Source: Mycolicibacterium rufum
Lineage (GTDB): Bacteria; Actinomycetota; Actinomycetes; Mycobacteriales; Mycobacteriaceae
Assembly (NCBI RefSeq): GCF_022374875.2
Contig: NZ_CP092427.2
Coordinates: 3,596,001-3,660,000 of the forward strand
Direction: 5' to 3'
DNA length: 64,000 nucleotides
Shown: positions 15,255 to 23,743 of the stretch, piece by piece
How positions within the stretch are numbered: the first letter of the stretch is position 1
Layout: every line of letters begins with the position of its first letter
The notes under the pieces: generated by a model
What the model was told of the DNA's origin: nothing
Databases searched by the model: none
Seen by the model: the letters and a program-made list of their open reading frames with translations, nothing else
Made by a program: the position numbers and the translations under genes

Positions 15255-16193
15255 GTGCGAACACTGGTCACGGGGGCAGCCGGGTTCATCGGGTCGACGC
15301 TGGTGGACAGGCTGCTCGCCGACGGGCACGCGGTGGTGGGTCTCGACGACCTCAGTTCCGGGCGCAGCGAGAACCTCGGTGCCGCCGAACGGTCCGACGA
15401 CTTCGAGTTCGTCAAGGCCGACATCGTCGAGGCCGGCCTCGTCGGGCTGCTCGAGGACGTGAAGCCGGAGGTGGTGTTCCACCTCGCCGCGCAGATCTCG
15501 GTCAGCCGCTCGGTCACCGAGCCGGTGTTCGACTCCAGCGTCAACGTGGTGGGCACCGTGCGGTTGGCCGAGGCGGCCCGCCGTGCCGGGGTCCGCAAGG
15601 TCGTGCACACGTCGTCGGGCGGGTCGGTCTACGGTGCGACACCCCGTTACCCGACCGACGAGGACAACGCGCTCGATCCGGCGTCGCCCTACGCCGCGAG
15701 CAAGGTGTGCGGCGAGGTCTACTTCGGCATGTTCCGCAACCTCTACGGCCTGGACTGCAGCCACATCGCGCCCGCCAACGTCTACGGCCCGCGTCAGGAT
15801 CCGCACGGTGAGGCGGGCGTGGTCGCGATCTTCTCCCGCGCGCTGCTCGCCGGCCGGCCGACGAAGATCTTCGGCGACGGCAGCGACACCCGCGACTACG
15901 TGTTCGTCGACGACGTCGTCGACGCGTTCGTGCGTGCGTCCGGCGAGGCCGGCTCGGGGCAACGGTTCAACATCGGCACCGGGGTGGAAACCTCGACGCG
16001 TCAACTGCATTCGGAGATCGCGGCGGCCGCCGGCGCGCCCGACGAGCCGGAGTTCCACCCGCCGCGGCTCGGTGATGTGCGGCGGTCCTGCCTGGACAAC
16101 AGCCGCGCCGGGTCGGTGCTGGGATGGCAGCCGAAGGTCGCGTTGCGCGACGGTGTGGCCCGGACCGTGGAGTACTTCCGCGAGAACGGCTAG
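15255..16193 (+). CDS. galE: NAD-dependent sugar epimerase, UDP-glucose 4-epimerase type
   Basis: 312 residues from GTG 15255 (VRTLVTGAAGFIGS); the longer frame upstream overlaps the divergent gene and is rejected. Extended SDR: NAD-binding GAAGFIG (7-13), DLSSG, HLAAQ, catalytic Tyr/Lys in SPYAASKVCGE, and substrate-loop RDYVFVDDVV. Matches Rv3634c (GalE1, 314 aa), which supplies UDP-galactose for the arabinogalactan layer. Convergent with the DUF2304 gene by a 4-bp tail overlap. Confidence 0.92.
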   Translation: MRTLVTGAAGFIGSTLVDRLLADGHAVVGLDDLSSGRSENLGAAERSDDFEFVKADIVEAGLVGLLEDVKPEVVFHLAAQISVSRSVTEPVFDSSVNVVGTVRLAEAARRAGVRKVVHTSSGGSVYGATPRYPTDEDNALDPASPYAASKVCGEVYFGMFRNLYGLDCSHIAPANVYGPRQDPHGEAGVVAIFSRALLAGRPTKIFGDGSDTRDYVFVDDVVDAFVRASGEAGSGQRFNIGTGVETSTRQLHSEIAAAAGAPDEPEFHPPRLGDVRRSCLDNSRAGSVLGWQPKVALRDGVARTVEYFRENG

Positions 16194-16531
16194 TTCTGCT
16201 CGGGCACCCGGGCGTTCTGCAGCGCCACCGCGCGGGCCAGCCGGGTGTACTTGAGCTCGATGTCCTTGAACCGCATGTAGGTCGACAGCGTGGTGAACGC
16301 GAACGCGATGATCAGCACGTACTCCAGGAGATCCGTGCCGCGGTCCACGCCGAGCCAGTTCGCCACCACCGTGGTGTCGTCGGGCCGCAGGATCGCGTAG
16401 ATCCCGGCGATCACGAACAGCACGTAGCCGACCTTGACCCACGCCTTCGACCGCGCGCTACCGCGGGACCGCAGCAGATACACCAGCAGCACCAGCACCG
16501 AGGCGATCAGCAGCACCTGGATCCAGTTCAT
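16190..16531 (-). CDS. DUF2304 small membrane protein, partner of the adjacent GT2
   Basis: 113 residues from ATG 16531. Three hydrophobic segments (WIQVLLIASVLVLLVYLL; VGYVLFVIAGIYAIL; YVLIIAFAFTTLSTYM), a conserved RPD between them, then a short amphipathic tail. Equivalent to Rv3632. DUF2304 proteins are almost always coupled to polyprenyl-phosphate glycosyltransferases and are thought to anchor or activate them. Here the start overlaps the GT2 stop by 4 bp (ATGA), so the two are translationally coupled. Confidence 0.88.
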   Translation of the reverse strand: MNWIQVLLIASVLVLLVYLLRSRGSARSKAWVKVGYVLFVIAGIYAILRPDDTTVVANWLGVDRGTDLLEYVLIIAFAFTTLSTYMRFKDIELKYTRLARAVALQNARVPEQN

Positions 16532-22800: not shown

Positions 22801-23743
22801 GACCCTTCCCGGTGAGCCGGGCCGCGCACGCCACCACGGTCGCCTCGGTGGGGCCGTAGGTGTTCCACACCTCGCGGCCGTCGACCGCGAGCCGCTCGGC
22901 CAGCTCCGGCGGGCACGCCTCGCCGCCGAAGATCAGCAGCCGCACGGCCTCGAGGGCCTCGGCCGGCCACAGCGACGCCAGCGTCGGCACCGTCGAGACC
23001 ACCGTGATGTCGCGGGACACCAGCCACGGACCCAGGTCCATGCCGCTGCGCACCAGCGACCGCGGGGCGGGCACCAGGCAGGCGCCGTGCCGCCAGGCCA
23101 GCCACATCTCCTCGCAGGACGCGTCGAACGCCACCGACAGACCGGCCAGCACCCGGTCGCCCGGACCGAGCGGGCTGCCCTGCAGGAACATCTCGGCTTC
23201 GGCGTCGACGAACGCCGCGGCGTTGCGGTGGGTGACCGCAACACCCTTGGGGGTGCCGGTCGAGCCGGAGGTGAAGATGATCCAAGCGTCGTCGCGGCTC
23301 AACGGCGCGGTCGCGCGCCAGCCGCGCGACGAGCCGGGCCCGCGGACCAGGCCGCGCTCGGTGATCACGGCGACGACGTCGGCCTCGGTGAACACGAGTT
23401 CGGCGCGCTCGGGCGGGTCGTCGGCGTCGACGGGCACGTAGGCCGCGCCGGTGGCCAGCGTCGCGAGGATCGCGACGTAGAGCGCATAGCTGCCCGACGG
23501 CATCCGGATCCCGATGCGGTCGCCGCGGCCGATCCCGCGGGCCGCCAGCCAGGCCACGCTGTCCTCGACGTCGGCGATCAGCTCGGCGTAGGTGAGCTGG
23601 ACGGCGCCGTCGTCGATCGCGGTCGCGTCGGGGTAGCGCCGCGAGGTCTCGTAGAGGATGTCGATCAGCGTGCGTGGCTGCGGGGCCAGGGCCGACAGCA
23701 GGTACTGGCCGGGGATCTCGGAGGTTGGATCCGCTGCTGTCAC
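19829..23743 (-). CDS. Pls-type single-module NRPS (A-T-six TM-three soluble domains)
   Basis: 1304 residues from GTG 23743 (VTAADPTSEIPGQY). Adenylation domain ~25-500: A3 IIFTSGSTGTPKG (155-167), A4 FDAS with the alpha-amine-binding Asp (D207), A5 NTYGPTEAT (294-302), A7 YRSGDLV, A10 RTSGKVDR (481-488). Thiolation domain with phosphopantetheine Ser538 in LGGGSLS. Then three pairs of membrane helices (~610-665, ~827-900, ~1076-1133), each followed by a soluble domain with hexapeptide-like repeats. This is the architecture and length of epsilon-poly-L-lysine synthetase Pls (~1319 aa). No TE domain. Product unknown; an isopeptide-linked amino-acid polymer or amide is the family inference. Confidence 0.9.
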   Translation of the reverse strand: MTAADPTSEIPGQYLLSALAPQPRTLIDILYETSRRYPDATAIDDGAVQLTYAELIADVEDSVAWLAARGIGRGDRIGIRMPSGSYALYVAILATLATGAAYVPVDADDPPERAELVFTEADVVAVITERGLVRGPGSSRGWRATAPLSRDDAWIIFTSGSTGTPKGVAVTHRNAAAFVDAEAEMFLQGSPLGPGDRVLAGLSVAFDASCEEMWLAWRHGACLVPAPRSLVRSGMDLGPWLVSRDITVVSTVPTLASLWPAEALEAVRLLIFGGEACPPELAERLAVDGREVWNTYGPTEATVVACAARLTGKGPVSIGLPLAGWDLAVVDAAGNPVPVGEVGELVIGGVGLARYLDPEKDAEKYAALPTLAWSRAYRSGDLVRLEADGLYFMGRADDQVKVGGRRIELGEVDTALVHLPGVSGGAAAVRRTAGGTPLLVGYVVVAPGAAFDLHAARSRLAESLPAALVPRLVVVDELPTRTSGKVDRDALPWPVGPAEDDAADLGGTLGWLAGLWREVLAAPIDGPEADFFALGGGSLSAAQLIAALRQRYPQVTVADLYDHPRLGSLAGYLEELEPPPATETREVTPVSRLTQAVQVALTVPLASLTGMQWVVWLAIANNVAAALALVPWAWPLSWWWILAGFLLFVTPPGRMGIAVLGARILAGTLAPGTYRRGGSVHLRVWLAERLAEASGAENMAGAPWLMYYARALGNSVGTGVDLHSAPPVTGMLTLGHRCSIEPEVDLTGHWIDGDLFHLGPITVGNDATIGARTTLLPGAVVGKNADVAPGSGVVGKVKNRQYWKGSPAVKSGKAKHPWPDHRPPRSPLWVAVYGLTSVLLGALPLAALAVGLAVVGWGIRGTATLGDAVLPALAWSVPATAAALVVYAALTVLGVRVLSLGLREGYHPVRSRAGWQLWATERLMDGARNYLFPIYAGLLTPWWLRLLGARVGKGTEISTALLIPKFTVVEDSAFLADDTMVASYELGGGWIHVARATVGKRAFLGNSGITQPGRRVPDDGLVAVLSATPHKAKAGSSWLGSPPMRLRRQPTAADALRTFHPSMRLRALRATVETFRFVPVVVTFAIGVGVLLAVQALVLAFGWLGAACLTGLVLLAAGAVAGGIAVLAKWLLVGRITAIEHPLWSSFVWRNEVSDTFVETVAAPWFARAAAGTPVMNVWLRALGATIGRGVWCETYWLPEADLVTLGDGATVNRGCVVQTHLFHDRIMRMDTVVLERGATLGPHCVALPAARLGAGATVGPASLVVRGDEVPASTRWQGNPIAPWLPPRKKRGDAPKTKKPAAA

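What the first reader, a model, noticed from the sequence alone, without database searches (positions are those of the whole stretch)
16190..23743. Pls-type synthetase, M1 peptidase, flippase-like, GT2 and DUF2304 form one overlapping operon
Five minus-strand genes are joined by GTGA or ATGA overlaps or a 9-nt gap. The first encodes an NRPS with the exact layout of epsilon-poly-L-lysine synthetase (A-T, six TM helices around three soluble domains, 1304 aa). The second is a zinc aminopeptidase, the class that degrades epsilon-polylysine in Streptomyces. The rest is a polyprenyl-sugar/flippase set. Together this suggests an amino-acid polymer, or an amino-acid modification of a lipid-linked envelope sugar, made, exported and trimmed by one system. 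I know of no described mycobacterial pathway of this kind.
Basis: partly seen in the sequence, partly recalled or inferred. Interest (0 to 1): 0.85.

Follow-up and report, generated by a model that had tools for sequence, protein, structure and literature searches.

The report
Polylysine synthetase in arabinogalactan-decoration locus
In many mycobacteria and some of their relatives, the genes for making and breaking down the positively charged polymer epsilon-poly-lysine sit in the same gene cluster as the known pathway that adds the positively charged sugar galactosamine to the cell wall, which suggests the two tune the charge of the envelope together and points to a candidate for the pathway's missing flippase.

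Summary
In detail: five overlapping or near-overlapping minus-strand genes, 16190-23743. Gene 1 is an epsilon-poly-L-lysine synthetase by family (Pls/PosA, 722 bits) and pocket (DAESIGTVVK in 126 of 126 aligned synthetases); gene 2 is a PldII-like M1 aminopeptidase that tracks it (17 of 17 Pls+ genomes, 1 of 16 Pls-). Genes 3-5 are not a new pathway: the GT2 is PpgS (over the curated cut-off), DUF2304 its partner, gene 3 a MOP-fold flippase-like protein; this is the arabinogalactan-galactosamine (GalN) pathway known from M. tuberculosis and C. glutamicum. New here: the union is widespread. Pls-M1-flippase-PpgS-DUF2304 order recurs in Mycobacterium and, with genes inserted before PpgS, in four other genera, while the outer flanks TerC and GT-C do not. 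The flippase-like gene co-occurs with PpgS (35 of 36 PpgS+ genomes) but is joined to M1-Pls, making it the best candidate for the unidentified GalN flippase. Each module also exists without the other, so obligatory covalent coupling is unlikely. Most likely: a composite locus that puts primary amines on the envelope by two routes. Product, location and coupling are untested.

The parts
19829..23743 (-). Pls/PosA-family synthetase (predicted epsilon-poly-L-lysine synthetase), 1304 aa: A domain ~30-490, T domain with GGGSL at 535-539, membrane/hexapeptide region 597-1282
   Evidence: TIGR02353 722 bits (cut-off 423); PF00501, PF00550, Hexapep; best PDB match 7wew epsilon-poly-L-lysine synthase A domain; pocket D207 A208 E211 S250 I271 G273 T295 V303 V304 K485
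18486..19832 (-). M1 zinc aminopeptidase, PldII-like by position and co-occurrence, 448 aa, HEXXHX18E at 300, no hydrophobic segment found
   Evidence: PF01433 and PF17900; motif; hydropathy; co-occurrence with Pls
17248..18489 (-). MOP-superfamily (MATE/WzxE/MurJ fold) flippase-like protein, 413 aa; Rv3630-type by position (recalled)
16528..17238 (-). PpgS, polyprenyl-phospho-N-acetylgalactosaminyl synthase (GT2), 236 aa
   Evidence: NF058614 390.8 bits (cut-off 370)
16190..16531 (-). DUF2304 small membrane protein (PpgS partner, Rv3632-type), 113 aa, three hydrophobic segments
   Evidence: PF10066 101.6 bits; segments
15255..16193 (+). SDR epimerase, Rv3634c-type by position (recalled); convergent with the operon
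   Evidence: Pfam GDP_Man_Dehyd/Epimerase; best NCBIfam matches dTDP-glucose dehydratase and GalE are below their cut-offs; found next to DUF2304 in most PpgS+ loci
13400..15196 (-). GT-C-fold membrane protein with a C-terminal carbohydrate-binding-module-like domain (Rv3635-type by position, recalled), 598 aa
23967..25013 (+). TerC-family gene, divergent upstream flank; found beside the locus within Mycobacterium only
   Evidence: PF03741; 0 of 40 loci outside Mycobacterium

Best explanation
A composite envelope-amine locus made of two modules that have stayed side by side. Module 1 (Pls-M1): the A domain activates L-lysine and loads the T domain; the membrane-embedded region polymerises it to epsilon-poly-L-lysine and delivers it across the membrane; the M1 enzyme, which shows no hydrophobic export segment, is a PldII-like peptidase that limits or clears the polymer. 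Module 2: the epimerase supplies UDP-GalNAc, PpgS with DUF2304 makes polyprenyl-P-GalNAc, the MOP protein flips it, an unidentified enzyme deacetylates it, and a DUF6541 membrane protein encoded elsewhere in the genome transfers GalN to arabinogalactan. Both modules place primary amines (positive charge) at the wall, and in this genome are probably co-transcribed so that envelope charge is set in one step. Shown here: gene content, families, pocket residues, order, co-occurrence, predicted folds. Inferred: products, flippase role, co-transcription, where the polymer stays, and the functional reason for the linkage.
For: Pls: TIGR02353 far over cut-off; pocket identical to epsilon-poly-L-lysine synthase 7wew as printed in the alignment and in 126 of 126 aligned synthetases, 98 mycobacterial and 28 from other genera (the set holds a few repeats, since 5 named loci repeat unnamed ones). 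A Corynebacterium variabile Pls, also in an operon with a peptidase, makes epsilon-poly-lysine when expressed in S. coelicolor (PMC8117764, Results read). M1: present in 17 of 17 Pls+ and 1 of 16 Pls- genomes of the 33 chosen; S. albulus pldII follows pls and is translationally coupled (PMC9223678, passages). GalN module: PpgS over the equivalog cut-off; the DUF6541 transferase candidate is in 38 of 38 PpgS+ and 0 of 22 PpgS- genomes of the 60 chosen, in 4 of the 38 as two or three stretches. Flippase: MOP fold; in 35 of 36 PpgS+ and 2 of 85 PpgS- genomes. Linkage: Pls and FLP adjacent in 14 of 25 non-Mycobacterium genomes that have both; 10 of those 14 fetched, all 10 with M1 between and PpgS downstream. 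Criss-cross: M1 goes with Pls by presence, yet stays in the flippase-PpgS locus when Pls is elsewhere (L181-L184, L206). One genome (L171) holds Pls, M1, FLP, PpgS, DUF2304, epimerase and a transferase-candidate homologue in 19 kb.
Against: 79 of 84 FLP-lacking genomes of the family have Pls, and some mycobacteria have only one module, so neither needs the other. Conserved neighbourhood is not proof of joint function. In 11 of the 25 non-Mycobacterium genomes with both, Pls and FLP are not adjacent, and in all ten fetched adjacent loci FLP and PpgS are separated by about 0.9 kb or more, by a gene in those examined. C. variabile showed no epsilon-poly-lysine in culture, nor did C. glutamicum expressing its Pls (PMC8117764). 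The flippase-like gene has a match in 245 of 248 Mycobacterium genomes, PpgS- ones included, so it has at least one further role. Rv3630 has been annotated as a MATE-like drug efflux protein (PMC8562490, passages). The near-absence of genomes lacking both modules (4 of 248, against 16.7 expected if independent) rests on few independent events (4 and 7 changes on the flippase tree) and is not significant.
Confidence: 0.55

Rival explanations
1. Two independent systems that happen to be neighbours: epsilon-poly-lysine is a secreted antimicrobial with its self-protection peptidase, and the GalN pathway is wall decoration; the linkage is inherited order without shared function.
For: Each module occurs alone in many genomes; in four examined mycobacteria the Pls-M1 pair lies apart from FLP-PpgS (L071-L078), about 165-227 kb away in three of them; in other genera a convergent GT2 gene (seen in L171, L172, L174) or a wider gap separates FLP from PpgS, so they are not one operon there.
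Against: Pls-M1-FLP-PpgS-DUF2304 order persists in groups g26, g11, g9 and g4 while TerC and the GT-C neighbour are found in 0 of 40 loci outside Mycobacterium; M1 stays in the FLP-PpgS locus even where Pls has left.
Confidence: 0.3
2. One pathway: oligo- or poly-lysine is attached to the GalN amine, on polyprenyl-P-GalN or on arabinogalactan, and M1 trims it.
For: Co-localisation of synthetase, peptidase and an amine-bearing lipid-linked sugar; the PosA polymerisation region is modelled as left-handed beta-helices packed as in sugar-nucleotide acyltransferases (PMC10522769, section 13) and the window protein has a Hexapep match; no polymer was seen in C. glutamicum expressing a Corynebacterium Pls (PMC8117764).
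Against: PpgS- genomes keep Pls-M1 with an unchanged pocket and PpgS+ genomes live without Pls; Streptomyces makes free epsilon-poly-lysine with the same kind of enzyme pair.
Confidence: 0.1
3. The MOP protein is a cation/drug or polylysine exporter rather than a lipid-linked-sugar flippase (not exclusive of the readings above).
For: MATE transporters rank at or above WzxE among its fold matches; its start overlaps the M1 stop in the window; Rv3630 has been annotated MATE-like.
Against: 79 of 84 genomes without it have Pls, so Pls does not need it; its presence follows PpgS.
Confidence: 0.15

Closest known systems
pls-pldII of Streptomyces albulus and pls-peptidase operon of Corynebacterium variabile
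   Same: A-T-six TM-C1/C2/C3 synthetase with a lysine pocket, followed by an aminopeptidase gene (translationally coupled in S. albulus)
   Different: Here the pair continues into a flippase-like gene and the PpgS pathway; the passages and sections I saw mention no such neighbours (their gene-context figures were not visible)
Arabinogalactan galactosamine pathway: M. tuberculosis Rv3631/Rv3632/Rv3634c/Rv3779, C. glutamicum cgp_0391, 0393, 0394, 0396 and cgp_0658
   Same: PpgS over the equivalog cut-off, DUF2304 partner, epimerase neighbour, DUF6541 transferase candidate about 15 kb from the emb genes
   Different: 7 of 7 examined Pls-lacking mycobacterial loci have the set without Pls-M1; flippase and deacetylase are stated as unidentified (PMC9671496)
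PosA, delta-poly-L-ornithine synthetase of Acinetobacter
   Same: Same family and architecture
   Different: Pocket position 2 is Met in PosA, Ala here as in lysine enzymes; PosA is a single-gene operon (PMC10522769)
WzxE / MurJ / MATE (MOP superfamily)
   Same: Predicted fold, 12 hydrophobic segments
   Different: No sequence family match in Pfam or NCBIfam; substrate unknown

Membership tests
Pls (epsilon-poly-L-lysine synthetase), Pls/PosA family | A-T domains plus full-length NRPS_term_dom with three TM pairs | tested here: met
   TIGR02353 722 bits over 2-695 of 695; three hydrophobic groups
Pls (epsilon-poly-L-lysine synthetase), Pls/PosA family | Lysine pocket with Ala at position 2 and Glu at position 3 | tested here: met
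   DAESIGTVVK, same residues in the printed 7wew alignment; code positions placed by hand from recalled GrsA numbering
Pls (epsilon-poly-L-lysine synthetase), Pls/PosA family | Makes epsilon-poly-L-lysine | not testable with these tools
   needs enzyme assay
PldII (epsilon-poly-lysine-degrading aminopeptidase) | M1 zinc site HEXXHX18E | tested here: met
   residue 300 onward; that PldII is of the M1 family is recalled
PldII (epsilon-poly-lysine-degrading aminopeptidase) | Coupled to and co-occurring with pls | tested here: met
   GTGA overlap; 17 of 17 against 1 of 16
PldII (epsilon-poly-lysine-degrading aminopeptidase) | Sequence relation to S. albulus PldII | not tested
   S. albulus sequence not retrieved; names in the 120 listed relatives were mycobacterial or unspecific, most had none
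PldII (epsilon-poly-lysine-degrading aminopeptidase) | Degrades epsilon-poly-lysine | not testable with these tools
   needs assay
PpgS | NCBIfam equivalog cut-off | tested here: met
   390.8 against 370 bits
Arabinogalactan GalN pathway | DUF2304 partner and epimerase adjacent | tested here: met
   PF10066; epimerase in the window and in most PpgS+ mycobacterial loci
Arabinogalactan GalN pathway | Rv3779-type transferase in the genome | tested here: inconclusive
   DUF6541 protein about 15 kb from the emb genes, beside ORFs I take for GlfT1 and ABC genes without a family test; co-occurs 38 of 38 / 0 of 22; not compared with the Rv3779 sequence itself
MOP-superfamily lipid-linked-sugar flippase | MOP fold | tested here: met
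   predicted model only
MOP-superfamily lipid-linked-sugar flippase | Flips polyprenyl-P-GalN(Ac) | not testable with these tools
   only co-occurrence with PpgS

The most novel reading that the evidence does not exclude
Lysine oligomers made by Pls are attached to galactosamine on the lipid carrier or on arabinogalactan, and M1 sets their length: an aminoacylated arabinogalactan, the mycolata's counterpart of alanyl-decorated teichoic acids, which would also explain why epsilon-poly-lysine was not seen in corynebacterial cultures.
Probability: 0.1. Interest if true: 0.9.

Novelty: new variant of a known kind. Interest (0 to 1): 0.6.

Why it matters
Pls-family synthetases are over the cut-off in 186 of 248 sampled Mycobacterium species and in 109 of 121 genomes of the family, yet no role for them in mycobacteria turned up in the papers found. 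Linking them to a wall-decoration pathway gives a concrete, testable role (envelope charge) and names a candidate for the flippase that the GalN pathway still lacks. It also corrects the idea that PpgS/DUF2304 mark pathogens.

Tried and rejected
Considered and rejected: an undescribed sugar pathway (PpgS identified); a Pls-M1 fusion as a general feature (one ORF of 1748 aa in L194 only; in L193 the M1 frame overlaps Pls in another frame); long Pls N-termini in L195-L197 (they look like non-coding extension of the frame); complementarity of the two modules as evidence (too few independent events); Pls pocket divergence (none in 126). A name for S. albulus PldII among M1 relatives was not found in the 120 listed of 7471. 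MSMEG_6145 passages gave no link.

My own errors: the epimerase and GT-C queries used were translated out of frame, so the labels GalE and TM3635 there are void; one search repeats the work with correct frames and is the one cited for them. In one search the flippase of L184 fell under the filter; it is seen. One search stopped part-way; the rest was done.

Limits: the survey lists only the best 150 places per search, so adjacency was counted on 87 genomes of 248. Absence was read by eye from best E-values and typed into: Pls absent in 61 (best E above 1e-50; the tool's tally of genomes without a match over its cut-off is 62) and PpgS absent in 68. The 20 'no PpgS' loci were chosen from those lists; 2 of the 20 (G006, G203) do have PpgS elsewhere and were dropped from the 18-of-18 count. 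Genomes for searches were chosen, not random. Architecture C loci from the named scan were not checked for Pls elsewhere. Of the 140 mycobacterial loci, 5 named ones repeat unnamed ones. The named scan returned the best 80 of 398 relatives. Gene calls outside Mycobacterium are crude.
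Full report

Known pathway. In M. tuberculosis PpgS with Rv3632 makes polyprenyl-P-GalNAc, unidentified factors flip and deacetylate it, and Rv3779 moves GalN to arabinogalactan; C. glutamicum has ppgS, cgp_0393, cgp_0391 and cgp_0658, and phage Cog needs them (PMC9671496, passages and section 12). M. smegmatis is said to have neither ppgS nor Rv3779 homologues (PMC3485146, passages). The two original papers, Skovierova 2010 and Draper 1997, are not held.

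Survey in Mycobacterium. Of 248 species genomes, Pls is over the cut-off in 186, PpgS in 180, and the flippase-like protein has a match in 245. Among 87 genomes whose Pls and PpgS places were both listed, 63 are adjacent on one strand, 15 lie far apart on one contig and 9 on different contigs. Reading 140 mycobacterial loci with correct queries (60 unnamed, 80 named; 5 of the named repeat unnamed ones) gives three main orders. A: TerC< Pls> M1> FLP> PpgS> DUF2304> epimerase< GT-C>, 55 loci counting truncated ones and the rearranged L052, plus 2 contigs cut within M1; for example M. chubuense, chlorophenolicum, rhodesiae, and litorale (epimerase not found there). B: TerC< Pls> M1> FLP> GalE2> GT-C>, 43 loci plus 1 with Pls missing from a short contig; for example M. 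vanbaalenii, iranicum, tusciae, novocastrense. The GalE2 tested (L031) is a canonical UDP-glucose 4-epimerase over its cut-off whereas the window's epimerase is not. C: FLP> PpgS> DUF2304> epimerase< GT-C> without Pls in the locus, 32 loci; for example M. gordonae, szulgai, gastri, celatum; four of the 32 come from genomes that have Pls-M1 elsewhere. The rest are one locus with Pls-M1 moved downstream (L079) and six Pls-M1 loci without FLP. Not every locus in a class shows every flank.

The GalN module behaves as a unit. Among 60 chosen genomes the DUF6541 candidate is present in 20 of 20 A, 7 of 7 C, 4 of 4 split genomes and 7 of 7 PpgS+ genomes of other genera, and absent in 18 of 18 B genomes, 2 of 2 with neither module and 2 of 2 FLP-less relatives; in G029, G161, G186 and G239 the match is in two or three stretches.

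M1 belongs to Pls. Of 33 chosen genomes, M1 is found in 17 of 17 with Pls and in 1 of 16 without (G273). In S. albulus pldII follows pls, is reported as translationally coupled, and degrades epsilon-poly-lysine (PMC9223678, passages). In C. variabile the same pair exists and the synthetase makes 26-35-mers in S. coelicolor, although neither C. variabile nor C. glutamicum expressing the gene gave detectable polymer (PMC8117764, Results and Discussion).

Outside Mycobacterium. In 121 genomes of the family (31 genera, 7 genomes being Mycobacterium), Pls is over the cut-off in 109. FLP and PpgS co-occur: 35 genomes have both, 1 PpgS only (81% complete), 2 FLP only, 83 neither (strong matches only). 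Pls does not follow FLP: 30 of 37 FLP+ and 79 of 84 FLP- genomes have it. Of 25 non-Mycobacterium genomes with both Pls and FLP, 14 have them adjacent and 11 do not; 10 of the 14 were fetched and all 10 read Pls> M1> FLP> ... PpgS>, with DUF2304 following (in L179 cut by the stretch end). They fall in groups g26, g11, g9 and g4. In three of them (L171, L172, L174) a GT2 gene on the opposite strand stands between FLP and PpgS (Pfam run on the last two); in the g4 loci the gap is wider. In a small-genome group (g3, likely Corynebacterium) genes that read like rml genes and an opposite-strand GT2 stand there (L206); this resembles cgp_0396. In L181-L184 and L206 M1 and FLP stay in the PpgS locus while Pls lies elsewhere. 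In five FLP-less loci (L186-L190) Pls is followed by M1 without FLP or PpgS. TerC and the GT-C gene, the flanks in Mycobacterium, appear in 0 of 40 loci outside it, although the epimerase does in some. So the Pls/GalN neighbourhood seems older than its present flanks.

Reading. Presence ties M1 to Pls and FLP to PpgS; position ties M1 to FLP. The simplest account is two modules with a shared benefit. Both products are rich in primary amines, so envelope charge is the natural common denominator, but this is inference. The flippase-like protein is the best candidate for the missing GalN flippase, with the caveat that PpgS-lacking mycobacteria keep it, next to GalE2 and the GT-C protein, and must use it for something else. 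Obligatory covalent joining of polylysine to GalN is unlikely because each module lives alone in many genomes; optional joining is not excluded.

Against the reading. Neighbourhood is not function. No expression data were available. Near-absence of genomes with neither module (4 of 248: G005 and G052, which are 84 and 87% complete, G072, G215; 16.7 expected if independent) is not significant once relatedness is considered.

Novelty. Paper searches (listings) showed no paper that joins Pls with the GalN pathway or reports a role for Pls in mycobacteria; some listings were capped and the library lacks most subscription papers, so this is weak. Parts are known, the union is not described in what I could search: a new variant of a known kind.

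Noticed in passing
window 16190-17238: Rv3631/Rv3632 were listed as present only in pathogenic mycobacteria (PMC3756022, 10 species, passages); PpgS is over its cut-off in 180 of 248 species here, and the locus is in environmental ones such as M. chubuense.
   Followed up: yes
G115 (3.3-Mb single-contig Mycobacterium genome): The flippase-like gene matches in five stretches with a weak best match (2.7e-44) while PpgS matches at 4.2e-117.
   Followed up: no
L125: A contig titled Bifidobacterium breve MAG carries the full mycobacterial Pls-M1-FLP-PpgS locus; probably a mislabelled bin.
   Followed up: no
L052 (G231): Pls A-domain piece displaced into the flippase region; a rearranged or broken copy.
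   Followed up: no
G273, L210: M1 of this type without a Pls match over the cut-off in the genome.
   Followed up: no
L194 (G283): Pls and M1 in one open frame of 1748 aa; a natural fusion or an indel, not seen in the genus-mate G254.
   Followed up: partly
window 59624-62404 and 62530-63819: Two neighbouring plus-strand genes with Polysacc_lyase domains (PF14099), one with bacterial Ig domains, one with a CBM60 module.
   Followed up: no
G000:C1 about 4.85-4.88 Mb and 5.54-5.56 Mb: Two regions with giant NRPS open frames (7664 and 7576 aa) in the window's genome.
   Followed up: no
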